Below are positions 13,798 to 64,000 of a stretch of DNA of 64,000 bases, piece after piece (position 1 is the stretch's first letter; every line of letters starts with the position of its first letter). The notes beneath the pieces are model-generated. The model saw nothing but the letters and a program-made list of their open reading frames with translations, made no database searches and was not told the origin of the DNA. The stretch covers positions 24,690,184-24,754,183 of the forward strand of contig CAIIXF020000012.1 of NCBI GenBank assembly GCA_903813345.2. The letters are read 5' to 3'. The DNA comes from Owenia fusiformis (taxonomy: Eukaryota > Annelida > Polychaeta > Sabellida > Oweniidae). The position numbers and the translations under genes were made by a program.

Positions 13798-13805
13798 TTT
13801 TGAAT

Positions 13806-14922: not shown

Positions 14923-15357
14923 TTTTGAATACGTCTAAAGAGTTTAATCTAAAAAATAATATTCGGTCAATTGCTACTTATTTATGCTCTTCTAACTTGT
15001 GGTTTTCGCATATATTGTGAATGCTTTCCTTATGAATCGATGTATTTATTGAATACAAGTCAGGCTAGTGATTTTCAGGCAAAAATATGTATAAGACTGA
15101 CAGAATTGCTCACTTTCCGATATAACAAGACTATAGCATACGATTCGTGCAAATAACACGTTTACGGATACCTGAAGTTAAAATATATAGTATGGAAAGG
15201 AATATAAATTACTTACTTTACATAAAGTCAAGTGACAGCAATTTCATGAGCAAATTTATCAACCTACCTCTCAAATGTTAAAAAAACACGACTAAAGAGT
15301 TTGAAAAAACACGACCGGGCCAATTTGCACTGTTAACTCTTGGTCACCGTCACATAG

Positions 15358-31812: not shown

Positions 31813-34800
31813 GCATGTATAGTGACTGATCACTGTAGATTACTTCGCGATTTTGCCAATGGAAATGACGTCTTGGATTTCCTGGTGGGTCCGAAAATTG
31901 ACATTCAGTACATAGCCCAAAGTAAATCAGACTTGTATGACAAATTAGATACTCAATATCTCATGATTAGTATGACCAATCAACACGTCCTCGGTAGGAA
32001 AAATGTCAAAATGTATCCTGAAACATCTCACTAAATAACAAATATCATGCTGTCACCAGCGTTACGTACGACTGGTCCGAAAATTGACATTTCCTCCAGA
32101 GCACAAACTGCATCATAGATTTAAGACGAATTAGATATCAAATATATCACGAACGGGAACATCATTCATTAAATCCATTCAAGAGCATACTCCAAAATAT
32201 ATACTTAAACGTCTCACAAAATTGCAAAGGACTGGCATGTACCAGTGTGACGTACGACTCTTCGGAAAATTGACATTTCGTCAAGAGCGCAAATTGCATA
32301 AGCGATTAAGACGAATTGGATATTATATATCCCCCTAACAGAGAAGTCAATCGATACATCCCTTTTTTGGCAAACGTGAAAATATATACATTAACGTCTC
32401 ACAATATATCAAACTAGTCGCTGCTACCAGTGCGATGTACAGCTGGTCCGAAAATTGACATTCCGTACATAGCCCAAAGTAAATCAGACTTGTATGACAA
32501 ATTAGAAACTCAATATCTCATGAATAGTAAGGCCAACCAACATGTCCTCGGTAGGTAAAATGTCAAAATGTATCCTGAAACATCTCACTAAATAACGAAT
32601 ATCATGCTGTCACCAGCGTTACGTACGACTGGTCCGAAAATTGACATTTCCTCCAGAGCACAAACTGCATTATAGATTTAAGACGAATTAGATATAAAAT
32701 ATATCACAAACGAGAACATCATTCATTAAATCCATTCAAGCGCATACTTCAAAATATATACTTAAACATCTCACAAAATTGCAAAGGACTGGCATGTACC
32801 AGTGTGACGTACAAGAGCGCAAATTGCATAAGCTATTTAAGACGAATTGGATATTATATATCCCCCTAACAGAGAAGTCAATCGAAACATCCCTCCTTTG
32901 GCAAACGTAAAAATACATACATAAACGTCTCACAATATATCAAACTAGTCGCTGCTACCAGTGCGATGTACAGCTGGTCCAAAAATTGACATTCCGTACA
33001 TAGCCCAAAGTAAATCAGACTTGTATGACGATTTAGATACTCAATATCTCATGAATAGAATCACCAATCAACAAGTCCTCGGTAGGGCGCAAATGTAAAA
33101 ATGTATCTTGAAACATCTCACTTAATAAGAAATATCATGCTGCCACCAGCGTTACGTACGACTGGTCCGAAAATTGACATTTCCTCCAGAGCACAAACTG
33201 CATCATAGATTTAAGACGAATTAGATATAAAATATATCACGAACGGGAACATCATTCATTAAATCCATTCAAGAGCATACTCCAAAATATATACTTAAAC
33301 GTCTCATAAAATTGCAAAGGACTGGCATGTACCAGTGTGACGTACGACTGGTCGGAAAATTGACATTTCGTCAAGAGCGCAAATTGCATAAGCGATTTGA
33401 GACGAATTGGATATTATATATCCCTCTAACAGAGAAGTCAATCAATACATCCCTCCTTTGGCAAACGTAAAGATATTTACATAAACGTCTCACAATATAT
33501 CAAAATAGTCACTGCTACCAGTGCGATGTACAGCTGGTCCGAAAATTGACATTCCGTACATAGCCCAAAGTAAATCAGACTTGTATCACAAATTAGATAC
33601 TCAATATCTCATGAATAGTATGACCAATCAACAATTCCTCGATAGGGCAAATGTCAAAATGTATCCTAAAACATCTCACTAAATAACAAATATCATGCTG
33701 TCACCAGCGTTACGTACGACTGGTCCGAAAATTGACATTTCCTCTAGAGCACAAACTGCATCATAGATTTAAGACGAATTAGATATAAAATATATCACGG
33801 ACGGGAACATTATTCATTAAATCCATTCGAGAGCACACTCCAAAATATATACTTAAACGTCTCACAAAATTGCAAAGGACTGGCATGTACCAGTGTGACG
33901 TACGACTCTTCGGAAAATTGACATTTCGTCAAGAGCGCAAATTGCATAAGCGATTTAAGACGAATTGGATATTATATATCTCCCTAACAGAGAAGTCAAT
34001 CGATACATCCCTCCTTTGGCAAAAGTAAAAATATATACATAAACGTCTCACAATATATCAAACTAGTCACTGCTACCAGTGCGATGTACAGCTGGTCCGA
34101 AAATTGACATTCAGTACATAGCCCAAAGTAAATCAGACTTGTATGACAAATAAGACACTCAATATATCATGAATAGAATGACCAATCAACAAGTCCTCGG
34201 TTGGGCAAATGTCAAAATGTATCCTGAAACATCTCATTAAATAACAAATATCATGCTGCCACCAGCGTTACGTACGACTGGTCCGAAAATTGACATTTCC
34301 TCCAGAGCACAAACTGCATCATAGATTTAAGACGAATTAGATATAGAATATATCACGAACGGGAACATCATTCATTAAATCCATTCAAGAGCATACTCCA
34401 AAATAAATATTTAAACGTCTCACAAAATTGCAAAGGACTGGCATGTACCAGTGTGACGTACGACTGGTCGGAAAATTGACATTTCGTCAAGAGCACAAAT
34501 TGCATAAGCGATTTTAGACAAATTTGATATTATATATCCCCCTAACAGAGAAGTCAATCGATACATCCCTCCCTTGGCAAACGTAAAAATATATACATTA
34601 ACGTCTCACAATATATCAAACTAGTCGCTGCTACCAGTGCGATGTACAGCTGGTCCGAAAATTGACATTCCGTGCATAGCCCAAAGTAAAGCAGACTTGT
34701 ATGACAAATTAGATATTAATATCTCATGAATAGAATGACCAATCAACAAGTCCTCGGTAGGGCAAATGTAAAAATGTATCCTAAAACATCTCACTAAATA

Positions 34801-36444
34801 ACAAATATCATGCTGTCACCAGCGTTACGTACGACTGGTCCGAAAATTGACATTTCCTCCAGAGCACAAACTGCATCATCGATTTAAGACGAATTAGATA
34901 TAAAATATATCACCATATATCATCATTCATTAAATCCATTCAAGAGCATAGTCTCAAATATATACTTAAACCTGACTTAAACGTCTCACAAAATTGCAAA
35001 GGACTGGCATGTAACAGTGTGACGTACGACTGGTCGGAAAATTGACATTTCGTCAAGAGCGCAAATTGCATAAGCGATTTAAGACGAATTGGATATTATA
35101 TATCCCCCTAACAGAGAAGTCAATCGATACATCCCTCCTTTGGCAAAAGTAAAAATATATACATAAACGTCTCATAATATATCAAACTAGTCACTGCTAC
35201 CAGTGCGATGTACAGCTGGTCCGAAAATTGACATTCCGAACATAGCCCAAAGTAAATCAGACTTGTATGACAAATAAGACACTCAATATATCATCAATAG
35301 AATAAACAATCAACAAGTCCTCGATAGGGCAAATGTAAAAATGTATCCTGAAACATCTCACTAAATAACAAATATCATGCTGCCACCAGCGCTACGTACG
35401 ACTGGTCCGAAAATTGACATTTCCTCCAGAGCACAAACTGCATCATCGATTTAAGACGAATTAGATATAAAATATATCACGAACGGGAACATCATTCATT
35501 AAATCCATTCAAAAGCATACTCCAAAATATATACTTAAACGTCTCACAAAATCGCAAAGGATTGGCATGTACCAGTGTGACGTACGACTGGTCTGGAAAT
35601 TGACATTTCGTCAAGAGCGCAAATTGCATAAGCGATTTAAGACGAATTGGATATTATATATCCCCCTAACAGAGAAGTCAATCGATACATCCCTCCTTTG
35701 GCAAACGTAAAAATATATACATAAACGTCTCACAATATATCAAACTAGTCACTGCTACCAGTGCGATGTACAGCTGGTCCGAAAATTGACATTCCGTACA
35801 TAGCCCAAAGTAAATCAGACTTGTATGACAAATTAGATACTCAATATCTCATGAAAAGAATGACCAATCAACAAGTCCTCGGTAGGGAAAATGTAAAAAT
35901 GTATCCTGAAACATCTCACTAAATAACAAATATCATGCTGCCACCAGCGTTACGTACGACTGGTCCGAAAATTGACATTTCCGCCAGAGCACAAACTGCA
36001 TCATAGATTTAAGACGAATTAGATATAGAGTATATCACGAACGGGAACATCATTCATTAAATCCATTCAAAAGCATACTCCAAAATATATACTTAAACGT
36101 CTCACAAAATCGCAAAGGATTGGCATGTACCAGTGTGACGTACGACTCTTCGGAAAATTGACATTTCGTCAAGAGCGCAAATTGCATAAGCGATTTAAGA
36201 CAAATTGGATATTATATATCCCCCTAACAGATAGAGAAGTCAATCGATACTTCCCTCCTTTGGCAAACGTAAAAAGCGATGTACAGCTGGTCCGAAAATT
36301 GACATTCCGTACATAGCCCAAAGTAAATCAGACTTGTATGACAAATTAGATACTCAATATCTCATGAAAATAATGACCAATCAACAAGTCCTCGGTAGGG
36401 AAAATGTAAAAATGTATCCTGAAACATCTCACTAAATAACAAAT

Positions 36445-38676
36445 ATCATGCTGCCACCAGCGTTACGTACGACTGGTCCGAAAGTTGACATTTCCGCCAG
36501 AGCACAAACTGCATCATAGATTTAAGACGAATTAGATATAGAATATATCACGAACGGGAACATCATTCATTAAATCCATTCAAGAGCATACTCCAAAATA
36601 TATACTTAAACGTCTCACAAAATTGCAAAGGACTGGCATGTACCAGTGTGACGTACGACTGGTCGGAAAATTGACATTTCGTCAAGAGCGCAAATTGCAT
36701 AAGCGATTTAAGACGAATTGGATATTATATATCCCCCTAACTGAAAAGTCAATCGATACATCCCTCCTTTGGCAAACGTAAAAATATATACATAAACGTC
36801 TCACAATATATCAAACTAGTCACTGCTACCAGTGCGATGTACAGCTGATCCGAAAATTGACATTCCGTACATAGCCCAAAGTAAATCAGACTTGTATGAG
36901 AAATTAGATACTCAAAATCTCATGAATAGTATGACCAATCAACACATCCTCGGTAGGGCAAATGTCAAAATGTATCCTGAAACATCTCACTAAATAACAC
37001 ATATCATGCTGTCACCAGCGTTACGTACGACTGGTCCGAAAATTGAAATTTCCTCCAGAGCACAAACTGCATCAAAGATTTAAGACGAATAAGATATAAA
37101 ATATATCAAGAATGGGAACATCATTCATTAAATCCATTCAAGAGCATACTCCAAAATATATACTTAAACGTCTCACTAAATTGCAAAGGACTGGCATGTA
37201 CCAGTGTAACGTACAACTCTTTGGAAAATTGACATTTCGTCAAGAGCGCAAATTACATAAGCGATTTAAGACGAATTGGATATTATATATCCCCCCAACA
37301 GAGAAGTCAATCGATACATCCCTCCTTTGGCAAACGTAAAAATGTATACATAAACGTCTCACAATATATCAAACTAGTCACTGCTACCAGTGCGATGTAC
37401 AGCTGGTCAGAAAATTGACATTCCGTACATAGCCCAAAGTAAATCAGACTTGTATGACAAATTAGATACTCAATATCTCATGAAAATAATGACCAATCAA
37501 CAAGTCCTCGGTAGGGAAAATGTCAAAATGTATCCTGAAACATCTCACTAAATAACAAATATCATGCTGCCACCAGCGTTACGTACGACTGGTCCGAAAG
37601 TTGACATTTCCGCCAGAGCACAAACTGCATCATAGATTTAAGACGAATTAGATATAGAATATATCATGAACGGGAACATCATTCATTAAATCCATTCAAG
37701 AGCATACTCCAAAATATATACTTAAACGTCTCACAAAATTGCAAAGGACTGGCATGTACCAGTGTGACGTACGACTGGTCGGAAAATTGACATTTCGTCA
37801 AGAGCGCAAATTGCATAAGCGATTTAAGACGAATTGGATATTATATATCCCCCTAACTGAGAAGTCAATCGATACATCCCTCCTTTGGCAAACGTAAAAA
37901 TATATACATAAACGTCTCACAATATATCAAACTAGTCACTGCTACCAGTGCGATGTACAGCTGATCCGAAAATTGACATTCCGTACATAGCCCAAAGTAA
38001 ATTAGACTTGTATGAGAAATTAGATACTCAAAATCTCATGAATAGTATGACCAATCAACACATCCTCGGTATTGCAAATGTCAAAATGTATCCTGAAACA
38101 TCTCACTAAATAACACATATCATGCTGTCACCAGCGTTACGTACGACTGGTCCGAAAATTGAAATTTCCTCCAGAGCACAAACTGCATCATAGATTTAAG
38201 ACGAATTAGATATAAAATATATCAAGAATGGGAACATCATTCATTAAATCCATTCAAGAGCATACTCCAAAATATATACTTAAACGTCTCACTAAATTGC
38301 AAAGGACTGGCATGTACCAGTGTAACGTACAACTCTTTGGAAAATTGACATTTCGTCAAGAGCGCAAATTACATAAGCGATTTAAGACGAATTGGATATT
38401 ATATATCCCCCCAACAGAGAAGTCAATCGATACATCCCTCCTTTGGCAAACGTAAAAATGTATACATAAACGTCTCACAATATATCAAACTAGTCACTGC
38501 TACCAGTGCGATGGACAGCTGGTCAGAAAATTGACATTCCGTACATAGCCCAAAGTAAATCAGACTTGTATGACAAATAAGATACTCAATATCTCATGAA
38601 TAGAATGACCAATCAACAAGTCCTCGGTAGGGCAAATGTAAAAATGTATCCTGAAACATCTCACTAAATAACAAAT
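36445..38676. repeat. Tandem 1116-bp hexamer duplication in the satellite
   Basis: Two consecutive 1116-bp blocks (36445-37560, 37561-38676) carry the same alternation of B-monomer variants (ACTGGTCGG, then ACTCTTTGG). Their translations over 37112-37339 and 38228-38455 are identical, so the duplication is recent. Confidence 0.85.
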
Positions 38677-39889
38677 ATCATGCTGCCACCAGCGTTACGA
38701 ACGACTGGTCCGAAAATTGACATTTCCTCCAGAGCACAAACTGCATCATAGATTTAAGACGAATTAGATATAAAATATATCACGAACGGGAACATCATTT
38801 ATTAAATCCATTCAAGAGCATACTCCAAGATATATATCAAACGTCTCACAAAATTGCAATGGACTGGCATGTACCAGTGTGACGTACGACTGGTCGGAAA
38901 ATTGACATTTTGTCAAGAGCGCAAATTGCATAAGCAATTTAATACGAATTTGATATTATATATCCCCATTAAAGAGAAGTCAATCGATACATCCCTCCCT
39001 TGGCAAACGTAAAAATATATACATTAACGTCTTACAATATATCAAAATAGTCGCTGCTACCAGTGCGATGTACAGCTGGTCCGAAAATTGACATTCCGTA
39101 CATAGCCCAAAGTAAATCAGACTTGCATGACAAATTAGATACTCAATATCTCATGAATAGTATGACCAATCAACAAGTCCTTGGTAGGGCAAATGTCAAA
39201 ATGTATCCTGAAACATTTCACTAAATAACAAATATCATGCTGTCACCAGCGTTACGTACGACTGGTCCGAAAATTGACATTTCCTCGAGAGCACAAAATG
39301 CATCATAGATTTAAGACGAATTAGATATAAAATATATCACGAACGGGAACATCATTCATTAAATCCATTCAAGAGCATAATCCAAAATATATACTCAAAC
39401 GTCTCACAAAATTGCAAAGGACTGGCATGTACCAGTGTGACGTACGACTCTTCGGAAAATTGACATTTCGTCAAGAGCGCAAATTGCATAAGCGATTTAA
39501 GACGAGTTGGAAATTATATATCTCCCTAACAGAGAAGTCAATCGATACATCCCTCCTTTGGCAAACGTAAAAATATATACATAAACGTCTCACAATATAG
39601 CAAACTAGTCGCTGCTACCAGTGCGATGTACAGCTTGTCAGAAAATTGACATTCCGTACATAGCCCAAAGTAAATCAGACTTGTATGACAAATTAGATAC
39701 TCAATATCTCATGAATAGAATGACCAATCAACAAGTCCTCGGTTGGGAAAATGTCAAAATGTATCCTGAAACATCTCACTAAATAACAAATATCATGCTG
39801 TCACCAGCGTTACGTACGACTGGTCCGAAAATTGACATTTCCTCCAGAGCACAAACTGCATCATACATTTAAGACGAATTAGATATAAA

Positions 39890-40345
39890 TTCAAACATGA
39901 CCGTGCTCTATTCGAATTTCTCAACCAATCAGAATACAGCATAGCCAATATAGAACGTTCTTTAATTCTCCATAGATGCACGACCATGCTCTATTCAATC
40001 TGCAATTTGCATTGTTTTGAGTGACGTCACATCTCAGCTGCACATCTGGGGCTCTGTCCGGGGATAGCTGTTCTTTTTTACTCCCTCCGTAACTATTTTA
40101 TTTTATCAACACCCCATGTTTGCATACACCGTATCAAATCTAAAACGGGGAGTAAAATAGAACAGCCCAAACAAATTCTAAAATTTTTCTCTCCGACTTC
40201 CGAATCTTGACAGCATGCGTATTCTTCCTTCATGCCCGTTCCACATTTACTAATTTTTATGTTTTCGGTTCGTGCTTTGTACAACATTCTGTCCAACTCG
40301 TGCTGAATTTCACCATATTGAATGGCCTATCATTATTTATTCCTT
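39890..40345. mobile_element. ~458-bp unidentified insertion in the satellite
   Basis: Non-satellite DNA between satellite halves; candidate 5-bp duplication TAAAT (39886-39890 and 40345-40349). Contents: a doubled 'acga/ccRTGCTCTATTC' motif (39903, 39982), a TGACGTCAC palindrome (40022), and an inverted GCTGTTCTTTTTTACTCCC / GGGGAGTAAAATAGAACAGC pair (40066-40092, 40147-40170). No TIR at the edges and no domain in the 67-codon minus frame. Class unknown. Confidence 0.65.
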
Positions 40346-42667
40346 AAATATATCACTAACGGGAACATCATTCATTAAATCCATTCGAGAGCATACTCCA
40401 AAATATATACTTAAACGTCTCACAAAATTGCAAAGGACTGGCATGTACCAGTGTGACGTACGATTCTTCGGAAAATTGACATTCCGTCAAGAGCGCAAAT
40501 TGAATAAGCGATTTAAGAGGAATTGGATATCATATATCCCCCTAACAGAGAAGTCAATCGATACATCCCTCCTTTTGCAAAAGTAAAAATATATACATAA
40601 ACTTCTCACAATATATCAAACTAGTCGCTGCTACCAGTGCGATGTACAGCTGGTCCGAAAATTGACATTCCGTACATAGCCCAAAGTAAATCAGACTTGT
40701 ATGACGAATTAGATACTCAATATCTTATGAATAGAATGACCAATCAACAAGTGCTCGGTAGGGCAAATGTCAAAATGTATCCTGAAACATCTCACTAAAT
40801 AACAAATATCATGCTGTCACCAGCGTTACGTACGACTGGTCCGGAAATTGACATTTCGTCAAGAGCGCAAATTGCATAAGCAATTTAAGACGAATTAGAT
40901 ATAAAATATATCACGAACGGGAACATCATTCATTAAATCCATTCAAGAGCATACTCCAAAATATATACTTAAACGTCTCACAAAATTGCAAAGGACTGGC
41001 ATGTACCAGTGTGACGTACGACTGGTCGGAAAATTGACATTTCGTCAAGAGCGCAAATTGCATAAGCGATTTGAGACGAATTGGATATTATATATCCCCC
41101 TAACAAAGAAGTCAATCGATACATCCCTCCTTTGGCAAACGTAAAAATATATACATAAACGTCTCACAATATATCAAACTAGTCGCTGCTACCAGTGCGA
41201 TGTACAGCTGGTCCGAAAATTGACATTCCGTACATAGCCCAAAGTAAATCAGACTTGTATGACAAATTAGATACTCAATATCTCATGAATAGTATGACCA
41301 ATCGACAAGTCCTCGGTAGGGCAAATGTCAAAATGTATCCTGAAACATCTCACTAAATAACAAATATCATGCTGTCACCAGCGTTACGTACGACTGGTCC
41401 GGAAATTGACATTTCCTCCAGAGCACAAACTGGATCATAGATTTAAGACGAACTAGATATAAAATATATCACGAACGGGAACATCATTCATTAAATCCAT
41501 TCAAGAGCATACTCCAAAATATATCCTAAAACGTCTCACAAAATTGCAAAGGACTGGCATGTACCAGTGTGACGTACGACTGGTCGGAAAATTGACATTT
41601 CGTCAAGAGCGCAAATTGCTTAAGCGATTTAAGACGAATTAGATATAAAATATATCACGAACGGGAACATCATTCATTAAATCCATTAAAGAGCATACTC
41701 CAAAATATATACTTAAACGTCTCACAAAATTGCAAAGGACTTGCATGTACAAGTGTGACGTACGACTGGTCGGAAAATTGACATTTCGTCAAGAGCGCAA
41801 ATTGCATAAGCGATTTGAGACGAATTGGATATTATATATCCCCCTAACAGAGAAGTCAATTGATACATCCCTCCTTTGGCAAACGTAAAAATATATACAT
41901 AAACGTCTCACAATATATCAAACTAGTCGCTGCTACCAGTGCGATGTACAGCTGGTCCGAAAATTAACATTCCGTACATAGCCCAAAGTAAATCAGACTT
42001 GTATGACAAATTAGATACTCAATATCTCATGAATAGTATGATCAATCGACAAGTCCTCGGTAGGGCAAATGTCAAAATGTATCCTGAAACATCTCACTAA
42101 ATAACAAATATCATGCTGTCACCAGCGTTACGTACGACTGGTCCGGAAATTGACATTTCCTCCAGAGCACAAACTGCATCATAGATTTAAGACGAATTAG
42201 ATATAAAATATATCACGAACGGGAACATCATTTATTAAATCCATTCAATAGCATACTCCAAAATATATACTTAAACGTCTAACAAAATTGCAAAGGACTG
42301 GCATGTACCAGTGTGACGTACGACTGGTCGGAAAATTGACATTTCGTCAAGAGCGCAAATTGCATAAGCGATTTGAGACGAATTGGATATTATATATCCC
42401 CCTAACAGAGAAGTCAATCGATACATCCCTCCTTTGGCAAACGTAAAAATATATACATAAACGTCTCACAATATATCAAACTAGTCGCTGCTACCAGTGC
42501 GATGTACAGCTGGTCCGAAAATTGACATTCCGTACATAGCCCAAAGTAAATCAGACTTGTATGACAAATTAGATACTCAATATCTCATGAATAGTATGAC
42601 TAATCGACAAGTCCTCGGTAGGGCAAATGTCAAAATGTATCCTGAAACATCTCACTAAATAACAAAT

Positions 42668-45261
42668 ATCATGCTGTCACCAGCGTTCCGTACGACTGGT
42701 CCGGAAATTGACATTTCCTCAAACTGCATCATAGATTTAAGACGAATTAGATATAAAATATATCACGAACGGGAACATCATTCATTAAATCCATTAAAGA
42801 GCATACTCAAAAATAAATACTCAAACGTCTCACAAAATTGCAAAGGACTAGCATGTACCAGTGTGACGTACGACTGGTCGGAAAATTGACATTTCGTCAA
42901 GAGCGCAAATTGCATAAGCGATTTAAGACGAATTAGATATAAAATATATCACGAACGGGAACATCATTCATTAAATCCATTTAAGAGCATACTCCAAAAT
43001 ATATACTTAAACGTCTCACAAAATTGCAAAGGACTGGCTTGTACCAGTGTGACGTACGACTGGTCGGAAAATTGACATTTCGTCAAGAGCGCAAATTGCA
43101 TAAGCGATTTGAGACGAATCGGATATTATATATCCCCCTAACAGAGAAGTCAATCGATACATCCCTCCTTTGGCAAACGTAAAAATATATACATAAACGT
43201 CTCACAATATATCAAACTAGTCGCTGCTACCAGTGCGATGTACAGCAAGTCCGAAAACTGACATTCCGTACATAGCCCAAAGTAAATCAGACTTGTATGA
43301 CAAATTAGATACTCAATATCTCATAAATAGTATGACCAATCGACAAGTCCTCGGTAGGGCAAATGTCAAAATGTATCCTGAAACATCTCACTAAATAACA
43401 AATATCATGCTGTCACCAGCGTTACGTACGACTGGTCCGGAAATTGACATTTCCTCCAGAGCTCAACCTCTATCATAGATTTAAGACGAATTAGATATAA
43501 AATATATCACGAACGGGAACATCATTCATTAAATCCATTCAAGAGCATACTCCAAAATATATATTTAAACGTCTCACAAAATTGCAAAGGACTGGCATGT
43601 ACCAGTGTGACGTACGACTGGTCGGAAAATTGACATTTCGTCAAGAGCGCAAATTGCATAAGCGATTTGAGACGAATTGGATATTATATATCCCCCTAAC
43701 AGAGAAGTCAATCGATACATCCCTCCTTTGGCAAACGTAAAAATATATACATAAACGTCTCACAATATATCAAACTAGTCGCTGCTACCAGTGTGATGTA
43801 CAGCTGGTCCGAAAATTGACATTCCGTACATAGCCCAAAGTAAATCAGACTTGTATGACAAATTAGATACTAAATATCTCATGAATAGTATGACTAATCG
43901 ACAAGTCCTCAGTAGGGCAAATGTTAAAATGTATCCTGAAACATCTCACTAAATAACAAATATCATGCTGTCACCAGCGTTACGTACGACTGGTCCGGAA
44001 ATTGACATTTCCTCAAACTACATCATAGATTTAAGACGAATTAGATATAAAATATATCACGAACGGGAACATCATTCATTAAATCCAATTAAGACCATAC
44101 TCCAAAATATATACTTAAACGTCTCACAAAATTGCAAAGGACTAGCATGTACCAGTGTGACGTACGACTGGTCGGAAAATTGACATTTCGTCAAGAGCGC
44201 AAATTGCATAAGCGATTTAAGACGAATTAGATATAAAATATATCACGAACGGGAACTTCATTCATTAAATCCATTCAAGAGCATACTCCAAAATATATAC
44301 TTAAACGTCTCACAAAATTGCAAAGGACTGGCATGTACCAGTGTGACGTACGACTGGTCGGAAAATTGAAATTTCGTCAAGAGCGCAAATTGCATAAGCG
44401 ATTTGAGACGAATTGGATATTATATATCCCCCTAACAGAGAAGTCAATCGATACATCCCTCCTTTGGCAAACGTAAAAATATATACATAAACGTCTCACA
44501 ATATATCAAACTAGTCGCTGCTACCAGTGCGATGTACAGCTGGTCCGAAAACTGACATTCCGTACATAGCCCAAAGTAAATCAGACTTGTATGACAAATT
44601 AGATACTCAATATCTCATGAATAGTATGACCAATCGACAAGTCCTCGGTAGGGCACATGTCAAAATGTATCCTGAAACATCTCACTAAATAACAAATATC
44701 ATGCTGTCACCAGCGTTACGTACGACTGGTCCGGAAATTGACATTTCCTCCAGAGCTCAAACTGCATCATAGATTTAAGACGAATTAGATATAAAATATA
44801 TCACGAACGGGAACATCATTCATTAAATCCATTCAAGAGCATACTCCAAAATATATACTTAAACGTCTCACAAAATTGCAAAGGACTGGCATGTACCAGT
44901 GTGACGTACGACTGGTCGGAAAATTGACATTTCGTCAAGAGCGCAAATTGCATAAGCGATTTGAGACGAATTGGATATTATATATCCCCCTAACAGAGAA
45001 GTCAATCGATACATCCCTCCTTTGGCAAACGTAAAAATATATACATAAACGTCTCACAATATATCAAATTAGTCGCTGCTACCAGTGCGATGTACAGCTG
45101 GTCCGAAAACTGACATTCCGTACATAGCCCAAAGTAAATCAGACTTGTATGACAAATTAGATACTCAATATCTCATGAATCAGAATAGTATGACCAATCG
45201 ACAAGTCCTCGGTAGGGCAAATGTCAAAATGTATCCTGAAACATCTCACTAAATAACAAAT
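42668..45261. repeat. Two 1294-bp heptamer units in the satellite
   Basis: Each unit is a 736-bp tetramer (A with an 8-bp deletion after 'tttcctc', a B/A hybrid, B, C) followed by a 558-bp trimer. Anchors 42668, 43962 and 45262 are 1294 and 1300 bp apart; the 6 extra bases are a 'cagaat' insertion near 45183. Confidence 0.85.
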
Positions 45262-45392
45262 ATCATGCTGTCACCAGCGTTACGTACGACTGGTCCGGAA
45301 ATTGACTTTTCCTCCAGAGCACAAACTGCAAGTAATTACTTTCTTGATCACAATGACATCCCAAAAATTAATGAAGATAATAAGATATATGT

Positions 45393-47027
45393 GATAAAGA
45401 AATAACAATAGAAGAATGCCATACTTGTATAAGATCTTTTAAAAAAGGAAAGTCACCAGGAAGTGATGGTTTACCACCAGAATTTTATTTAGAATTTTGG
45501 GATCTATTAAAGAAGGATTTAGTTGAATGTTTTAATTTTTCTTTACAACAAGGTGAATTAAGTTGTAGCCAAAGGAGAGGAATAATTAGTTTAATCCCTA
45601 AAAAATCTAAAGACAGATATAATTTAGCTAATTGGAGACCAATAACATTACTTAATTATGATTATAAATTGTTGACCAAAATATTGTCTCAAAGATTAAG
45701 ATCGGAACTTCCAAATATAATTAGTGCAAACCAGACGGGATATGTAATGAAAAGATTCATGGGAACAAATGTTAGATTAATAAAAGATGTAATGCAATAT
45801 ATGGATGATACAAAACAAAATGGGCTGTTACTGTTTTTAGATTTTCATAAGGCGTTCGATTCCGTGGAATGGGAATTTATTGAACACACTTTGAAAGCTT
45901 TTGGTTTTGGAAACATTTTTATTAATTATTTTAAAAGTATTTACAAAAACTCTGAGAGCAGTATTATTAATAATGGAGAATCATCAGGATTTTTTAAAGT
46001 CAGTAGAGGAGTAAGACAAGGAGATCCACTTTCTGGCATGTTATTTATAATGATAATAGAAATACTAAGTCTAGAAATTCAAAGAAATAAAAACATACAT
46101 GGTATAAAAGTACAAGACTTAGAAATAAAGTCAGTTCAATATGCTGATGACATCACAGCAACCGTAAGTGATAAAGAGTCAGTGCAAGAAACTATAAATA
46201 TTTTAGATAGATTTGAAATATGTTCAGGATTAAAACTTAATAAAAGTAAAACAGAACTAATGTGGATTGGACAGTCAAAAAATAACCGAGAAACACTTAA
46301 TGATATACAAAATGTTAGGCAAGCTAAAGCACTGGGATATTGTTTTTCATATGATCAAAATGTTGAGTTAGAATTCAATGTTATGGATAAAATAAGAAAG
46401 ATAAAGAATAAGCTAAATATGTGGACATACAGAAACTTAAGTTTACAAGGAAGAATACTTTTGGTAAAATCTATTGGAATTTCCAAAATAACAAATATAT
46501 CAGCAATATCAATAATCCCAGAGAAATATATTAAAGAAATTGATGATGTTATATGGAATTTTGTATGGGGAAATAAGACTCCAAAGATTAAGAAAAAAAC
46601 GCTAATTGGTGAACTTCAAGACGGAGGCCTGAAAATGACAGAATTCCAATTGTTAGACCAGGCGCTTAAAGCAGTTTGGGTTAAAAGATTATCCAACGAT
46701 GAAGATGGTGCATGGAAAGCAATACCAAGAATGTTACTATCACAATTTGGACAAGATCTCCTTTTTAAGTCTAATTATGATTTTAAACATTTAGATTTAA
46801 CTAAAATGTATCCATTTTACAAGAATGTTGTAAAAGATTGGAACAAAATAAAGGATAACAGTCAACCAGAAGAAGTAGAGGAAATCCAGGAAGAGATAAT
46901 ATGGAACAATCAAAATATATTAATTGCAAATAAATCAGTTTTTCATAAGTATTGGTACAAACATGGTATTTGTAAAATAAAGCATATTGTGGATGAAAAT
47001 GGTAATTTTTACAGAAGAATGTTATAG
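45393..47027 (+). pseudogene. LINE ORF2 reverse transcriptase (main frame)
   Basis: RNA-dependent DNA polymerase used for target-primed reverse transcription. The frame is open from 45393, beginning DKEITIEECHTCIRSF and KKGKSPGSDGLPPEF, the conserved block ahead of the catalytic domain in L1/Tx1 LINEs. Counting from the leucine codon at 45669, the catalytic motifs are LDFHKAFD (57-64), RQGDP (116-120), YADD (158-161) and LKLNKSKTELMW after it, so all three metal-binding aspartates are present. A preceding piece, SNYFLDHNDIPKINED (45331 onward), is in another frame, showing one frameshift near 45391. A second shift near 47020 ends this frame at RRML-stop (47027). No ATG start is proposed because the 5' end is truncated. 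Confidence 0.9.
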
Positions 47028-47734
47028 AAGAAAAATATAATTTAAGAATCAAAGATATGGATTTTAATGGCTTAAAATCAGCAATACCTGCGGTTTGGAA
47101 AAAAATTTTAAGAGGACAAATTACAAATATTGCTAGAGTTGAAAGAAAGAGTAATGTCACTGTAGAAAATGTCACATGCAAAAAAGCACATAATACTTTG
47201 ATACAAAGTAATTTTGAAATACCTGTTTCACTCGAAAGAGTAAAACAATTTATTGAAGAAGAAGATATTCAATCACATTTTATGTTAGCAAAGAAAATTA
47301 CTAAAGATCCAAAATTACAAATATTTCAATTTAAAATACTCCATAATATACTTATATGTCAAGATAAATTGTTTAAAATGAAATTAGCTGATACACAAAA
47401 ATGTTTGTATTGCAATGAAATCCATACCCTGAAACATATGTTTGTTGATTGTAAAAAAGCAAAAGAAATGTGGAGTGAATTTTCTAAATTTGTAATTAAT
47501 GATAAAGTAAAACTACATGACAAAGATATTTTATATGGTTATAAACCTAAAGACGATGAGTATAATGTAATGAATTTAGCAATCATTATTATGAAATATT
47601 GTATATACAAAAGTTTTCTAGAAAAAACAAATGTAACCTTTTATGAGTTCAAATCATATATCAAAGATTATATAGAGAGATCCACTTTTTTTAATAAGAA
47701 TGACGAATTAGCAGTCATTTATAAAAAGTTATAA
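47021..47734 (+). pseudogene. LINE ORF2 C-terminal part with CCHC zinc motif
   Basis: Continuation of the reverse transcriptase protein in the next frame (VIEEKYNLRIKDMDFNG...), separated from the main part by a frameshift at about 47020. From the ATG at 47057 it encodes 225 residues: the FQFKILHNILICQDKLFKM segment (about 90-108) and a zinc-binding-like pattern C116-x2-C119-x7-H127-x4-C132 (CLYCNEIHTLKHMFVDC), typical of the L1/Tx1 C-terminus. It ends at TAA 47732-47734. The same region is what survives in the decayed minus-strand fragment at 10510-10985. Confidence 0.85.
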
Positions 47735-48220
47735 GAATATGTATTGTTTTTATTTTTGTATTAACTTTATATTTTCTATTGACATAATAAAAAAATTATG
47801 TGTAACAGTAATAAAAATAAATAGATATGTAACCAAAGATCATATTTAACATATTGTAAAATGTGTAATGAATGAACAGATGATTGAATGAGTGAATGAA
47901 TGTATGAATGAGGGATGTATGAATGAGGTTATTCCATAGATGCATACAACTACATATGAAATACATGTAACAAGCACAGTATCCATAAATAATACTGGAT
48001 CAATAAAAAAAACAGTAAACTTGGTAGATAAAAAGATCATAAGAACTTGTTTTGTAGATAAAGCATCATAAGAATAAGCTTTTTGTATCACTTCTTGAGA
48101 ATAAGAAATATATAACTAATGTTGGCGACAACCTTTAGCCCGTCAATTGTAAACACAAAAAATATTTATAGAATGCTGTAGTATGTATATATGAAATAAA
48201 TGAGTGAATAAAAAAAAAAA

Positions 48221-50316
48221 ATACTCCAAAATATATATACTTAAACGTCTCACAAAATTGCAAAGGACTGGCATGTACCAGTGTGACGTACGACTGGTCG
48301 GAAAATTGACAATTCGTCAAGAGCGCAAATTGCATAAGCGATATGAGACGAATTGGATATTATATATCCCCCTAACAGAGAAGTCAATCGATACATCCCT
48401 CCTTTGGCAAACGTAAAAATATATACATAAACATCTCACAATATATCAAACTAGTCGCTGCTACCAGTGCGATGTACAGCTGGTCCGAAAATTGACATTC
48501 CGTACATAGCCCAAAGTAAATCAGACTTGTATGACAAATTAGATACTCAATATCTCATGAATAGTATGACCAATCGGCAAGTCCTCGGTAGGGTAAATGT
48601 CAAAATGTATCCTGAAACATCTCACTAAATAACAAATATCATGCTTTCACCAGCGTTACGTACGACTGGTCCGGAAATTGACATTTCCTCCAGAGCACAA
48701 ACTGCATCATAGATTTAAGACGAATTAGACATAAAATATATCACGAACGGGAACATCATTCATTAAATCCACTCAAGAGCATACTCCAAAATATATACTT
48801 AAACGTCTTACAAAATTGCAAAGGACTGGCATGTACCAGTGTGACGTACGACTGGTCGGAAAATTGACATTTCGTCAAGAGCGCAAATTGCATAAGCGAT
48901 TTAAGACGAATTAGAAAGAAAATATATCACGAACGGGAACATCATTCATTAAATCCATTCAAGAGCATACTCCAAAATATATACTTAAACGTCTCACAAA
49001 ATTGCAAAGGACTGGAATGTACCAGTGTGACGTACGACTGGTCGGAAAATTGACATTTCGTCAAGAGCGCAAATTGCATAAGCGATTTGAGACGAATTGG
49101 ATATTATATATCCCCCTAACAGAGAAGTCAATCGATACATCCCTCCTTTGGCAAACGTAAAAATATATACATAAACGTCTCACAATATATCAAACTAGTC
49201 GCTGCTACCAGTGCGATGTACAGCTGGTCCGAAAATTGACATTCCGTACATAGCCCAAAGTAAATCAGACTTGTATGACAAATTAGATACTCAATATCTC
49301 ATGAATAGTATGATCAATCGACAAGTCCTCGGTAGGGCAAATGTCAAAATGTATCCTGAAACATCTCACTAAATAACAAATATCATGCTGTCACCAGCGT
49401 TACGTACGACTGGTCCGGAAATTGACATTTCCTCAAACTGCATCATAGATTTAAGACGAATTAGATATAAAATATATCACGAACGGGAACATCATTCATT
49501 AAATCCATTCAAGAGCATACTCCAAAATATATACTTAAACGTCTCACAAAATTGCAAAGGACTAGCATGTACCAGTGTGACGTACGACTGGTCGGAAAAT
49601 TGACATTTCGTCAAGAGCGCAAATTGCATAAGCGATTTAAGACGAATTAGATATAAAATATCTCACGAACGGGAACATCATTCATTAAATCCATTAAAGA
49701 GCATACTTCAAAATATATACTTAAACGTCTCACAAAATTGCAAAGGACTGGCATGTACAAGTGTGAGGTACGACTGGTCGGAAAATTGACATTTCGTCAA
49801 GAGCGCAAATTGTATAAGCGATTTGAGACGAATTGGATATTATATATCCCCCTAACAGAGAAGTCAATCGATACATCCCTCCTTTGGCAAACGTAAAAAT
49901 ATATACATAAACGTCTCACAATATATCAAACTAGTCGCTGCTACCAGTGCGATGTACAGCTGGTCCGAAAATTGACATTCCGTACATAGCCCAAAGTAAA
50001 TCAGACTTGTATGACAAATTAGATACTCAATATCTCATGAATTGTATGACCAATCGACAAGTCCTCGGTAGGGTAAATGTCAAAATGTATCCTGAAACAT
50101 CTCACTAAATAACAAATATCATGCTGTCACCAGCGTTACGTACGACTGGTCCGGAAATTGACATTTCCTCCAGAGCACAAACTGCATCATAGATTTAAGA
50201 CGAATTAGACATAAAATATATCACGAACGGGAACATCATTCATTAAATCCACTCAAGAGCATACTCCAAAATATGTACTTAAACGTCTTACAAAATTGCA
50301 AAGGACTGGCATGTAC
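48221..50316. repeat. 186-bp satellite array, block 1 continued
   Basis: Resumes after the LINE in monomer A. Anchors are 48638, 49382 (744 bp) and 50118 (736 bp), all tetramer-type units. The array breaks off inside monomer A at ATGTAC (50316), about 138 bp before a coding exon. Confidence 0.95.
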
Positions 50317-57624: not shown

Positions 57625-59832
57625 CAAATTAGCCTCGAAATGAACCGTTTTTTATAAGAAAAGCCTCGTTTTCGCGCCAAAAAAGCCTCGAAACAAAACG
57701 TTTTTAACTTTAAAAGCCTCGTTTTTGCCCAAAATAGCCTCGAACCGAAGCGTTTTAACCTTAAAGGCCTCGTTTTTGCCCAAAATAGCCTCGAACCGAA
57801 GCGTTTATTGTAAAAAAGCCTCGAAACAAATCGTTTCTTGCATTTAAACCTCGTTTTCGCGCAAAAAGCCTCGAAACAAAACGTTTTTAACTTTAAAAGC
57901 CTCGTTTTCGCCCTAAATAGCCTCGAACCGAAGCGTTATTAATTTGGAAGGCCTCGTTTTCGCGCCAAAAAGCCTCGAAACAAAGCGTGTTTAGCTTACC
58001 AGGCCTCGGTTTCGCCCAAAATAGCCTCGAACCGAAGCGTTTTTGGCAAAAAAGCCTCGAAACAAATCGTTTCTTGCATAAAAGCCTCGTTTTCGCGCCA
58101 AGAAGCCTCGAAACAAAACGTTTTTAACTGTAAAGCCTCGTTTTCCCCAAAAATAGCCTCGAAACGAAGCATTTTTTACTCAAAAGGCCTCGTTTTCGCC
58201 CGAAATAGCCTCTATCCGAAGCGTTTTTGCAAAAAAGCCTCGAAACAAATGGTTTTTTTGCAAAAAAAGCCTCGTTTTCGCGTTAAAAATCCTCGAAACA
58301 AAACGTTTTTAAATGTAAAAGCCTCGTTTAGGCGCCAAAAAGCCTCGAAACAAAACGTTTTTAACTTTTAAAGCCTCATTTCCGCCCTAAATAGCCTCGA
58401 ACCGAAGCGTTATTAATTTGGAGGGCCTCGTTTTCGCGCCAAAAAGCCTCGAAACAAAGCGTGTTTAGCTTACCAGGCCTCGTTTTCGCCCAAAATAGCC
58501 TCGAACCGAAGCGTTTTTGGCAAAAAAGCCTCGAAATAAACCGTTTATTGCAAAGAAGCCTCGTTTTCGCCCAAAATAGCCTCGAACCGAAGCGTTTTTT
58601 TTTGTAAAAAAAGCCTCGAAACAAATCGTTTCTTGCATTAAAGCCTCGTTTAGGCGCCAAAAAGCCTCGAAACAAAACGTTTTTAACTTTAAAAGCCTCG
58701 TTTTCGCCCTAAATAGCCTCGAACCGAAGCGTTATTAATTTGGAAGGCCTCGTTTTCGCGTCAAAAAGCCTCGAAACAAAGCGTGTTTAGCTTACCAGGC
58801 AAAAAAGCCTCGAAATAAACCGTTTATTGCAAAGAAGCCTCGTTTTCGCCCAAAATAGCCTCGAACCGAAGCGTTTTTTTTGTAAAAAAAAGCCTCGAAA
58901 CAAATCGTTTCTTGCATAAAAGCCTCGTTTTCGCGCCAAGAAGCCTCGAAACAAAACGTTTTTAACTTTACAAGCCTCGTTTTCGCCAAAAATAGCCTCG
59001 AAACGAAGCGTTTTTTTACTCAAAAGGCCTCGTTTTCGCCCGAAATAGCCTCTATCCGAAGCGTTTTTGCAAAAAAGCCTCGAAACAAATGGTTTTTTGC
59101 AAAAAAAAACCTCGTTTTCGCGTTAAAAAGCCTCGAAACAAAACGTTTTTAAATGTAAAAGCCTCGTTTTCGCCCAAAATAGCCTCGAAACGAAGCGTTT
59201 TTACTCAAAAGGCCTCGTTTTAGCTTACAAGGCCTCGTTTTCGCCCAAAATAGCCTCGAACCGAAGCGTTTTTGTCAAAAAAGCCTCGAAACAAATCGTT
59301 TCTTGCATAAAAGCCTCGTTTCCGCGCCAAGAAGCCTCGAAACAAAACGTTTTTAACTGTAAAAGCCTCGTTTTCGCCAAAAATAGCCTCGAAACGAAGC
59401 GTTTTTTACTCAAAATGCCTCGTTTTCGCCCGAAATAGCCTCTTTCCGAAGCGTTTTTGCAAAAAAGCCTCGAAACAAATAGTTTTTTGCAAAAAAGCCT
59501 CGTTTTCGCGTTAAAAAGCATCGAAACAAAGCGTTTTTAGCTTACAAGGCCTCGTTTTCGCCCAAAAAAGCCTCGAACCGAAAAAAACCTCGAAATAAAC
59601 CGTCTCTTGCAAAAAAGCCTCGTTTTCGCGCCAAAAAAAGCCTCGAAGCAAAACGTTTTCAACTTTTGAAACCTCGTTTTCGCCCAAAATAGCCTCGAAC
59701 CGAAACGTTTATAGCTTACAAGGCCTCGTTTTCGCCCAAAATAGCCTCGAACCGAAGCGTTTTTAACCTAGAAGGCCTCGTTTTCGCGCCAAAAAGCCTC
59801 AAAACAAAGCTTGTTTAGCTTACCTGAGGCCT
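57625..59832. repeat. 2.2-kb GCCTCG minisatellite
   Basis: Alternating half-units GCCTCGTTTTCGCGCCAAAA and GCCTCGAAACAAAACG (variants CGCCCAAAATA and GAACCGAAGCG), each followed by an AT-rich linker, repeat every ~50-55 bp. A longer order exists: the marker CCAAGAAGCCTCG recurs at 58098, 58936 and 59327 with similar surroundings. All minus-strand frames are partly open and read RGFLARKRGF-, RLFWAKTR- or CFEAFWREN-type repeats. They are products of the repeat, not accepted as genes. Confidence 0.9.
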
Positions 59833-60579: not shown

Positions 60580-60593
60580 ATTGAGAAGGATGC

Positions 60594-60853
60594 TCAGAAA
60601 ATTGACTTTTCGTATAGAGTGAAATGTAAATCAGAGATGACAAATTAGATACTCAGTATCTCACGAATAGAAATACCACTTAACAAGTCCTTAGTAGAGC
60701 AAATGCAAAAATATATCCTTCAACGTCTCTTAAATTATCAACCAACATGCTGCTACAAGCGTGACGTTAGATCGGTCCGAAAATTGACATTGCGTCTAGA
60801 GCGCAATTTAAATCCGAGCTTTACGACAACTCCTACAAATTAGATATAGTCCA
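60594..60853. repeat. Decayed copy of the 186-bp satellite
   Basis: About 1.4 monomers: a C-like part (CAAATTAGATACTCAGTATC, AACAAGTCCT) then an A/B-like start (GGTCCGAAAATTGACATT). Much more diverged than the array copies, so it is an old outlier. Confidence 0.8.
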
Positions 60854-60879
60854 GTTGCCAAATAGGAAAATGACACCAA

Positions 60880-62095
60880 AGGTCGTTTTGTGGTAGAAAG
60901 TTTTTTTCTTTGCATTTTTGGATACCTTATTGTGTCTGCATAAAATATTAGGAAGATGCAAAATTGTGCAGGTTGAGCATTTTTTATAAAATGCCATTGA
61001 AATTATGTAATCATTTCAGAGGTGGGCGTGGCACTTTACTTAACATATTATCATATAAAGGTTGCATCTTCACCTCAATAGACTGATATCTTAAACTGTT
61101 AGCATGCTAGTAATAACTACAGATAGCTAGAAATGATTTATGAGCATAATGTAAAGCAATTAAATGATATATTACGTAACAATTTCAGGTGGATATGGCA
61201 ATTTTGCTTCTCTCTACTTATTTTCACTTTTTCAGCTGAGCTTCCCAATGTTTTTGTAACAATTCCCAAGATATGACCCAGGTATTCTATGTTTGACAAC
61301 TGAACAAATATTAGCAAGTTGCAAAATACTGCAGGTTTTTATTTTTCATAATTAGGCATTAAAATTATGTAATGATTTTAGGAGGCGGCGTGGCACTTTA
61401 CTTCAAAAACCATCATATGAAGGTTGTTTCTGCTCAAGAACCAAGGTTTTTATTTAAGTGTAAACATGCTAGTAATAACTTCAGATAGCTATAAATGATT
61501 GATGTGTAATATGTTAATTAATTACATAATTAATGACGTAACAATCTAAGGTGGGTGTGTCAATTTTGCCAACATACCAGGGGCATGGTGCTTTACTTTA
61601 CAAACCACAATATAAAGGTTGTTTCTGCACACAAACCAACTGGTGTATTGAAATTAGGATGTTAGTTATAAATCCAGCTACAGGTATAAATGGTTCATGT
61701 GTAAAATGTTAATTAATTACATCATGACGTTACAATCTAAGGTGGGAGGTTCAATTTTGTCACTGTTTGCACTTTTTTAGCAGAGTTTCTTCATATTTTT
61801 GTGACTGCTAAAGTATGACCCAAATATATATCTTCATCAATTGAAAAGGTATTACCAAGGTTTCAAAATACTGCAGGTTGAGTATTCTTCATAAATTGGC
61901 ATTGGAATTATGTAATCATTATAGATGGGGGTGTGGCACTCTCTCCACTTAAAAACACCATATAAAGGTTTTCTTTGCACATGAATCGACTGATATTTTA
62001 AAATATAAGCATGCTAGGTATAACTACAGATATTTATAAATTATTTTATGTGTAAACTAATAATTAGTTACATCATAAATTACATCATTTTATAT
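60880..62095. repeat. ~355-bp tandem repeat, about four units
   Basis: GTGGCACTTTACTT-type sequence, preceded by 'attatgtaatcattt' and followed by 'atataaaggttg' and 'gcatgctagtaataac', recurs at about 61029, 61390, 61588 (a shortened unit) and 61935. Intervals of about 360 and 350 bp mark full units. Confidence 0.75.
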
Positions 62096-62941
62096 AAAAT
62101 TGTGGTTTATAATGCTATATCACCTGTTTGATTACCTAAATGCAGATTAAGATGATAATAGCCCCAGGTGCTGTATAAATCAGTGCCATTTTACAAACAT
62201 GTTTCCTGACCAAACCACTTGACACATGCTCAGAATCAAGGCTTTGATATCATATGACAGGGAGATTCATTCCATAGTATGGTGGCCACAATACAAAGTT
62301 AGCAAGAGATAAGGGGCTTACTACATCGCTGTATATCAAACCCATTATGACGTCAATGAAACTAACAACAAAAATGGTATTGTTGATGGAAGCTCAGAGA
62401 TTTAAGCTATGATTTTGGCCAATAGTATATCATATCTACCAACGACAAGCAGAGACAACATATAGCAGTTTCAGAGCAATGGTATTACCCTGATTGTTCC
62501 TGTAAGAACATGTACATGCTGACAAGATTTATGACATCCATGGGTATGTTCATGTCAGAAATTTGTATCCAGGAAATGAAAGAAGTGTAACGACCCTCAC
62601 CGCCCTCTCTCCGCACGGCGGTGCAGAGCAAACAGAAATGGTAGCGTGAATAAGGGGAAGGGCTAAGTGAGGTGAAAGAATCGTTAGCATTAAAATCCCG
62701 GGTTCGTGTTGTGCCTGTTAATACTCTCAAGGGTCCTCAGACATGACTTATAAAATGACAAAGGGACGGAATATGTCGCGCTGCGACATAAAACATACAC
62801 TTTAACTGACAAAACAGATGAGTTAAATTAAATATATAACTAAAAGATTAAAGGTTTATTAACAACTGAACAACATGGTAATACAGTGAGGCACACAAAG
62901 TGTGCAAACAAAGCCACACATAGTCTGATAAAATGTCTGAC
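62096..62941. other. Gene-less stretch before satellite block 2
   Basis: No convincing exon. 62590-62720 is GC-richer, with CCGCACGGCGG and CCCGGGTTCGTG. An 81-codon minus frame (62485-62730) has no known domain. Confidence 0.35.
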
Positions 62942-64000
62942 AAATGTCAAAATGTATCCTGAAACATCTCACTAAATAACAAATATCATGCTGTCACCAG
63001 CGTTACGTACGACTGGTTCGGAAATTGACATTTCCTCCAGAGCACAAACTGCATCATAGATTTAAGACGAATTAGATATAAAATATATCACGAACGGGAA
63101 CATCATTCATTAAATCCCTTCAAGAGCATACTTCAAAATATATACTTAAACGTCTCACAAAATTGCAAAGGACTGGCATGTACCAGTGTGACGTACGACT
63201 GGTCGGAAAATTGACATTTCGTCAAGAGCGTAAATTGCATAAGCGATTTGAGACGAATTGGATATTATATATCCCCCTAACAGAGAAGTCAATCGATACA
63301 TCCCACCTTTGGCAAACGTAAAAATATATACATAAACGTCTCACAATATATCAAACTAGTCGCTGCTACCAGTGCGATGTACAGCTGGTCCGAAAATTGA
63401 CATTCCGTACATAGCCAAAAGTAAATCAGACTTGTATGACAAATTAGATACTCAATATCTCATGAATAGTATGACCAATCGACAAGTCCTCGGTAGGGCA
63501 AATGTCAAAATGTATCCTGAAACATCTCACTAAATAACAAATATCATGCTGTCACCAGCGTTACGTACGACTGGTCCGGAAATTGACATTTCATCAGGAG
63601 CACAAACTGCATCATAGATTTAAGACGAATTAGATATTAAATATATCACGAACGGGAACATCATTCATTAAATCCATTCAAGAGCATACTCCAAAATATA
63701 TAGTTAAACGTCTCACAAAATTGCAAAGGATTGGCATGTACCAGTGTGACGTATAACTGGTCGGAAAATTGACATTTCGTCAAGAGCGCAAATTGCATAA
63801 GCGATTTAAGACGAATTAGATATAAAATATATCACGAACGGGAACATCTTTCATTAAATCTATTCAAGAGCATACTCCAAAATATATACTTAAACGTCTC
63901 ACAAAATTGCAAAGGACTGGCATGTACCAGTGTGACGTACGACTGGTCGGAAAATTGACATTTCGTCAAGAGCACAAATTGCATAAGCGATTTGAGACGA
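62942..64000. repeat. 186-bp satellite array, block 2 (continues past window)
   Basis: Starts abruptly in monomer C (CAAATGTCAAAATG). Anchors at 62985 and 63543 (558 bp). The second unit then includes the B/A hybrid monomer seen in the right half of block 1, so this is the tetramer-bearing subtype. Reaches the window end. Confidence 0.95.

What the first reader, a model, noticed from the sequence alone, without database searches (positions are those of the whole stretch)
31886..50316. Satellite with exact three-monomer higher-order repeat (3 x 186 = 558 bp)
Monomer starts at 43424, 43610, 43796 and 43982 are each 186 bp apart, yet the three monomers differ strongly from one another while 558-bp units are nearly alike. 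This is the organisation known from primate alpha satellite; here it is in what looks like an invertebrate. The monomer length is nucleosome-sized. A centromeric or heterochromatic role is inference.
Basis: partly seen in the sequence, partly recalled or inferred. Interest (0 to 1): 0.85.

Follow-up and report, generated by a model that had tools for sequence, protein, structure and literature searches.

The report
Layered three-monomer higher-order satellite, invertebrate
A repeated DNA made of 186-base units, grouped in threes and fours like the repeats at primate centromeres, was found on three chromosomes of what is probably a marine worm, and its sequences still show the misaligned exchanges that seem to have made each new grouping.

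Summary
The window carries 93 satellite hits (84 full 186-bp monomers), all on one strand, in three clades A, B and C (within 94-96%, between 64-74%). From 31.9 to 39.9 kb the order is C-A-B: monomers three apart are 94.6% alike, neighbours 68%. From 40.3 to 50.3 kb units of three and four alternate, so "exact 3 x 186" is only partly true. The extra monomer, A2, is a B/A crossover product: 45 of 45 diagnostic sites fit one breakpoint. Its exact junction occurs 110 times in the genome; all 100 places listed lie in one 281-kb stretch of C12. Monomer C looks like an older D/E crossover; D and E survive in more diverged arrays, some as D-E-A-B. The family is not local: roughly 1.2 Mb is estimated, and 140 of 140 exact-probe places lie on three of 12 chromosomes or three unplaced contigs. 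No CENP-B box, hairpin or constrained block was found. Restriction to three chromosomes argues against a universal centromere satellite; a pericentromeric role is inference. The kind is known; the species is probably Owenia fusiformis (inferred).

The parts
31885..39890 (+). Satellite array, regular C-A1-B trimer (558-bp HOR), 44 hits including partial monomers
39891..40344 (.). 454-bp unrelated insertion inside a monomer
40345..45330 (+). Satellite array mixing C-A1-B and C-A1-A2-B (period 1294 bp); includes the monomers at 43424 (A1), 43610 (B), 43796 (C), 43982 (A1) and 44160 (A2 hybrid)
45331..48221 (+). L1-like LINE, same orientation, ending in an A-run; RT domain in ORF 45384-47027, zf-RVT in ORF 47006-47734. 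Judged 5'-truncated because full relatives have frames of over 1000 codons. The satellite stops at model position 49 and resumes at 125, so about 75 bp of the monomer are missing
48222..50316 (+). Satellite array with two complete C-A1-A2-B tetramers and partial units at both ends
60588..60892 (+). Relic of two old-type monomers, one nearly full (D) and one partial; this stretch is repeated 207.8 kb upstream on C12 (98.2% over 446 bp)
62935..64000 (+). Start of the next satellite array (A1-B-C-A1-A2), running past the window's end

Best explanation
It is a nucleosome-length (186 bp) satellite DNA organised in higher-order repeats that arose and were replaced by unequal crossing-over between misaligned monomers. 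Shown by sequence: two deep monomer lineages and ten families; an old, decayed layer with families D-J (residual orders D-G-F-I-E-H and D-E-A-B); a regular trimer C-A-B on three chromosomes; and a tetramer C-A1-A2-B, seen only in one domain of C12, whose extra monomer A2 is a B(5')/A(3') crossover product. Supported less strongly: C itself is a D(5')/E(3') product that shortened D-E-A-B to C-A-B. Inferred: the arrays are non-coding parts of pericentromeric or other constitutive heterochromatin on these three chromosomes, where low meiotic exchange and recurrent sister-chromatid exchange or break repair amplify and homogenise blocks, and where LINEs and inversions accumulate without harm. A kinetochore role is possible but not indicated.
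For: Clades and lag curves. A2: 45 of 45 diagnostic sites fit one breakpoint, 0 of 20000 permutations as good; 113 of 114 A monomers that follow an A have the B-like 5' end against 1 of 186 that follow C. The exact A2 junction occurs 110 times, 100 of 100 listed within C12:24.5446-24.8254 Mb. C-to-C units in the fetched pieces and window, 163 in all: C12 24.5-24.9 Mb 51 C-A1-A2-B, 27 C-A1-B, 14 C-A1-A2-A2-B, 5 others of 97; C-A1-B elsewhere 30 of 31 on C2, 18 of 19 on C11, 16 of 16 on other C12 pieces. Relative ages by divergence from own consensus: A2 0.016; A1 0.031, B 0.030, C 0.031; D-J 0.064-0.090. C: first 5 of 5 diagnostic sites are D-like, then 12 of 14 E-like, 64 of 20000 permutations as good. 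Half-trees of 54 sampled rows: the 5' half rejects C+E (p-AU 0.0004) and not C+D (0.077); the 3' half just rejects C+D (0.047) and not C+E (0.39). D-E-A1-B runs: 6 in 4 of 24 sources. A one-monomer misalignment gives exactly these products.
Against: The heterochromatin role rests on position and repeat content alone; no chromatin, cytology or recombination data. Clusters spread over 9 Mb on C2 and 8 Mb on C12, wide for one pericentromere unless the scaffolding is wrong. The C hybrid rests on 19 diagnostic sites, 2 of which (both in the 3' part) disagree. In the 5' half-tree C+D is not the best tree and D is not one group; in the 3' half-tree E is not one group. The old layer has only weak lag structure (0.758 and 0.762 at lags 3 and 4, but also 0.756 and 0.759 at lags 12 and 14, against 0.727 at lag 1), and the full D-G-F-I-E-H order was seen 3 times, two of them in L012 and L013, which share duplicated stretches.
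Confidence: 0.78

Rival explanations
1. It is the centromeric satellite of the species: CENP-A nucleosomes sit on the youngest arrays (for C12 the 24.54-24.86 Mb domain), and the other chromosomes use unassembled or unrelated arrays.
For: Nucleosome-length monomer, HOR organisation, a youngest variant listed in only one domain of about 300 kb, older diverged layers elsewhere in the same chromosomes, a pattern like that of primate alpha satellite (PMC5615363, passages, and recall).
Against: 140 of 140 exact-probe places are on C2, C11, C12 or three unplaced contigs, none on the other nine chromosomes. No CENP-B box beyond chance, no hairpin signal, no lower substitution rate in the conserved block. 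Copies of one class within a fetched piece are mostly 95-98% alike and down to 0.895 for B in L007, less than I recall for active human arrays.
Confidence: 0.3
2. It is a simple 558-bp tandem in which a composite unit was copied, without real monomer structure.
For: 31.9-39.9 kb alone would look like this. B and C consensuses alone do not align better than the best of 200 shuffles.
Against: Units of 2, 3, 4, 5 and 6 monomers exist; ten families share one register with 75 of 185 columns identical; crossover hybrids inside monomers.
Confidence: 0.03
3. The multiplicity is an assembly artefact (retained haplotypes or misjoined repeat contigs).
For: A ~207-kb repeat of the C12 domain: D relic stretch 98.2% over 446 bp, inversion junction 91.8% over 3088 bp. 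C483 matches C2 at 97.0% over 2893 bp and 88.5% over 3796 bp, perhaps a haplotig. Several small contigs are exactly 25 or 50 kb, as automatic scaffolders leave (inference).
Against: The trimer is on three different chromosomes and the A2 junction has 110 places; duplication of haplotypes could double counts but not create families, HOR order or hybrids.
Confidence: 0.05
4. The arrays spread as cargo of a transposable element (for example the LINE found in the window).
For: A LINE lies inside the array; solo old-type relic at 60588.
Against: The LINE looks like one insertion with a deletion of about 75 bp of the monomer. Of 79 scored (of 3922 candidates), the 96-97% relatives lie at C12:23.0, C1, C9 and C10, at none of the satellite places listed, though those lists are samples. 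None of the 25 inverted pairs listed (of 38) in the window sits at an array edge. Array edges outside the window were not examined for this.
Confidence: 0.05

Closest known systems
Primate alpha satellite higher-order repeats
   Same: Corresponding monomers of different units about 95% or more alike and monomers of one unit much less alike (human values 70-90% and >95% in PMC5615363, passages); chromosome-specific variants (same passages); hybrid monomers and age layers (recalled).
   Different: 186 bp not about 170 bp; monomers of one unit only 64-74% alike; trimer/tetramer; found on three of 12 chromosomes; no CENP-B box; a domain of about 300 kb with interruptions in the assembly, not megabases.
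Regular HORs of beetle satellites
   Same: Regular HORs in an invertebrate.
   Different: PMC5615363 (passages) calls the beetle ones usually dimeric; here trimer and tetramer, with a traceable crossover hybrid and decayed older layers.
Molluscan satellites with subrepeats (Adamussium, Donax, Pecten)
   Same: Subrepeat structure, with HOR units ascribed to unequal exchange (PMC5874043, passages).
   Different: In the passages I saw these are composite monomers known from cloning and blots; no succession of units along chromosomes was described there.

Membership tests
HOR-organised satellite DNA (general kind) | Head-to-tail tandem monomers of fixed length | tested here: met
   185-187 bp spacing in 73 of 88 pairs
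HOR-organised satellite DNA (general kind) | Monomers within a unit much more diverged than corresponding monomers of different units | tested here: met
   0.64-0.74 against 0.94-0.96; lag curve; clades
HOR-organised satellite DNA (general kind) | More than one locus, long arrays | tested here: met
   5320 core matches genome-wide; the window and 11 fetched pieces between C12 24.54 and 24.86 Mb are 63% satellite (105534 of 167000 bases)
Primate alpha satellite | About 170-171-bp monomer | tested here: not met
   about 186 bp
Primate alpha satellite | Sequence homology to alphoid consensus | not tested
   no alphoid sequence was fetched
Primate alpha satellite | CENP-B box in a subset of monomers | tested here: not met
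   best match has 2-3 of 9 mismatches in each of 11 consensus sequences, reached by 52-271 of 300 shuffles; single monomers were not scanned
Centromeric satellite | Present on all (or most) chromosomes | tested here: not met
   three exact probes: 140 of 140 places on C2, C11, C12, C124, C265, C483; diverged relatives or unassembled arrays elsewhere cannot be excluded
Centromeric satellite | CENP-A occupancy / kinetochore site | not testable with these tools
   needs ChIP or CUT&RUN

The most novel reading that the evidence does not exclude
An independently evolved analogue of alpha satellite in a lophotrochozoan worm: a centromeric HOR satellite in which four successive generations can be read in one assembly (D-G-F-I-E-H relics, D-E-A-B, C-A-B, C-A1-A2-B), the last two with their founding crossovers identified, the youngest marking the active centromere of C12.
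Probability: 0.2. Interest if true: 0.8.

Novelty: new member of a known kind. Interest (0 to 1): 0.52.

Why it matters
How HOR arrays are born and replaced is argued mainly from primates (my general knowledge). Here one assembly, probably of an annelid, seems to hold parent and product arrays, with one founding crossover visible as a hybrid monomer whose listed copies all lie in one 281-kb stretch. This makes the layered-expansion model testable in another phylum and gives FISH probes for three chromosomes of a worm used in developmental studies (if the species inference is right).

Tried and rejected
CENP-B box search: no better than shuffles. Hairpin/dyad at the monomer junction, tempting because the junction reads like a broken palindrome: folds of three 80-nt junction consensuses have z -1.42, -0.83 and -0.69, with 18, 43 and 55 of 200 shuffles folding as well. 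Constraint on the block conserved between families (53 columns): within-family rate not lower (70 of 188 shifts as low in young, 164 of 188 in old families); but sites identical in all ten family consensuses vary somewhat less within families (0.022 against 0.033 young, 0.072 against 0.093 old), so weak constraint is not excluded. LINE as satellite-specific element: not supported. Species by mitochondrial COX1: no match. rDNA linkage: the 18S family search failed on the machine; the 5.8S search (39 of 14450 candidates scored) gave one match on unplaced contig C501, uninformative. Whole-genome monomer map: not possible, since lists are cut at about 100-150 places and only the best candidates are scored; sampled with exact probes instead. 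Literature: ten searches, of which I saw the listed titles and abstract starts only (5 of the 10 found more papers than were listed), showed no description of this satellite; passages of PMC12692304 were not relevant; 'Owenia' with 'satellite DNA' gave 0 papers. Only open-licence PMC text is searched, so this does not show that it is unpublished.
Full report
Observation. The window is G000:C12:24690184-24754183 of a 498.3-Mb assembly. C1-C12 are 31.9-62.2 Mb each and together 477.5 Mb, so no further contig can be larger than about 21 Mb. Tandem Repeats Finder reports 186-bp arrays at 32.0-39.9, 40.3-45.3, 48.2-50.3 and 63.0-64.0 kb.

Higher-order structure. From 31885 to 39890 the order is C-A1-B throughout, with two truncated monomers in B position and one cut at the end; identity at lag 3 is 0.946 against 0.682 at lag 1. 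From 40345 to 50316 trimer and tetramer alternate (best of lags 1-10 is lag 7, 0.936). So the 558-bp unit is real but not the only unit.

Hybrid monomer A2. The second A of each tetramer equals B up to about column 55 and A1 afterwards: 45 of 45 diagnostic sites, 0 of 20000 permutations as good. It is found in 113 of 114 A monomers that follow an A and 1 of 186 that follow C. A single exchange between a B and an A misaligned by one monomer gives C-A-(B/A)-B, as seen. The exact 44-bp junction occurs 110 times in the genome, all on one strand; the 100 places listed all lie on C12 between 24544625 and 24825421. The lists appear to run in contig order, so exact copies on C1-C11 should have come first; the last 10 places are not shown.

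Older layers. Twenty-three further stretches were fetched, chosen where matches had been listed. With the window they hold 1095 profile hits and 926 full monomers; the 169 partial hits were left out of family counts, and 12 full ones stayed unassigned. Families D-J are 0.064-0.090 from their own consensus against about 0.03 for A1, B and C and 0.016 for A2. The tree of 126 sampled monomers splits into {C,D,E,G,I,J} and {A,B,F,H} with 100/100 support; nine of ten families are one side of a branch, E is not. Monomer order in old arrays keeps D-G-F-I-E-H (3 complete runs, 2 of them in L012 and L013, which share duplicated stretches) and D-E-A1-B (6 runs in 4 of 24 sources, 4 of them in L012 and L013). 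The lag signal there is weak.

Origin of C. Against D and E, C is D-like at the first 5 of 5 diagnostic sites and E-like at 12 of the remaining 14; 64 of 20000 permutations do as well. Half-trees agree: the 5' half rejects C with E (p 0.0004), the 3' half just rejects C with D (p 0.047); C with D in the 5' half (0.077) and C with E in the 3' half (0.39) are not rejected, although neither is the best tree found. An exchange between D and E of misaligned D-E-A-B units would leave (D/E)-A-B. I hold this as likely, not shown.

Distribution. A degenerate core pattern with up to two mismatches has 3187 + 2133 places (reversed control 1 + 0). Scaled by the fetched stretches and window (867 core places for 189435 satellite bases) this is about 1.16 Mb, 0.23% of the assembly; those stretches were chosen for satellite and the core suits A-C better than D-J, so this is rough. 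Three exact probes of different families gave 35, 43 and 62 places, 140 of 140 on C2, C11, C12 or unplaced C124, C265 and C483. Clusters run over C2 9.9-18.9 Mb, C11 7.3-12.7 Mb and C12 17.3-25.7 Mb. The trimer is shared by all three chromosomes. Mean identity of one class within a piece of the C12 domain is 0.949-0.979; C12-domain to C2 it is 0.937-0.961 for C and A1 and 0.908-0.965 for B; the lowest within-piece value is 0.895 (B in L007). The C12 domain holds a repeat about 207 kb apart that may be a segmental duplication or a retained haplotype; 24.6505-24.6902 Mb was not looked at.

Function. No CENP-B box, hairpin or constrained block was found. Presence on three of 12 chromosomes, as far as exact probes tell, speaks against a general centromere satellite. 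A pericentromeric heterochromatin satellite is the most likely reading by analogy and remains inference. The LINE in the array looks like an ordinary insertion, with 96-97% relatives at C12:23.0, C1, C9 and C10.

Organism. Twelve chromosome-size contigs and 498 Mb resemble Owenia fusiformis (haploid assembly 505.8 Mb, 12 chromosome-scale scaffolds; PMC9977687, passages; that look-up counted no 'satellite' or 'centromer' in its main text). This is inference: no marker gene was matched.

Known or new. HOR satellites are a known kind. A review calls regular HORs in beetles usually dimeric and reports complex HORs in several mammals and in insects (PMC5615363, passages). Ten searches listed no description of this satellite, which does not prove there is none.

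Noticed in passing
window 57625-59823: About 2.2 kb of a 52-bp minisatellite (GCCTCGAAACAAARCGTTTT-type) with reported periods up to 391 bp (among them 104, 132, 184, 204, 279), itself HOR-like.
   Followed up: no
window 13803-14924: 85-nt inverted arms (92%) made of a 15-bp tandem repeat (AACCCAGTTGTCCGA), 952 nt apart: perhaps a foldback-type element with tandem repeats in its ends.
   Followed up: no
window 6060-6435 and 7842-8236: Two tandem arrays of related 135-146-bp units containing a near-palindromic AAAATGGCGGCCATTTT motif.
   Followed up: no
window 20221-21815; 260-2350: Long inverted repeats (217 nt at 91%; 158-164 nt at 87-93%), as in foldback or MITE-like elements.
   Followed up: no
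L003:7225-7258 and L040:2587-2598: Same kind of junction between young + strand A/B/C arrays and old - strand monomers, at two places about 207 kb apart on C12.
   Followed up: partly
L012 and L013: C483 (317 kb) matches C2:17.864-17.874 Mb at 97.0% over 2893 bp and 88.5% over 3796 bp, perhaps an unpurged haplotig.
   Followed up: partly
G000 genome-wide: The L1-like LINE group is abundant: 3922 first-look candidates, many of the 79 scored with open frames of over 1000 codons, suggesting recent activity.
   Followed up: no
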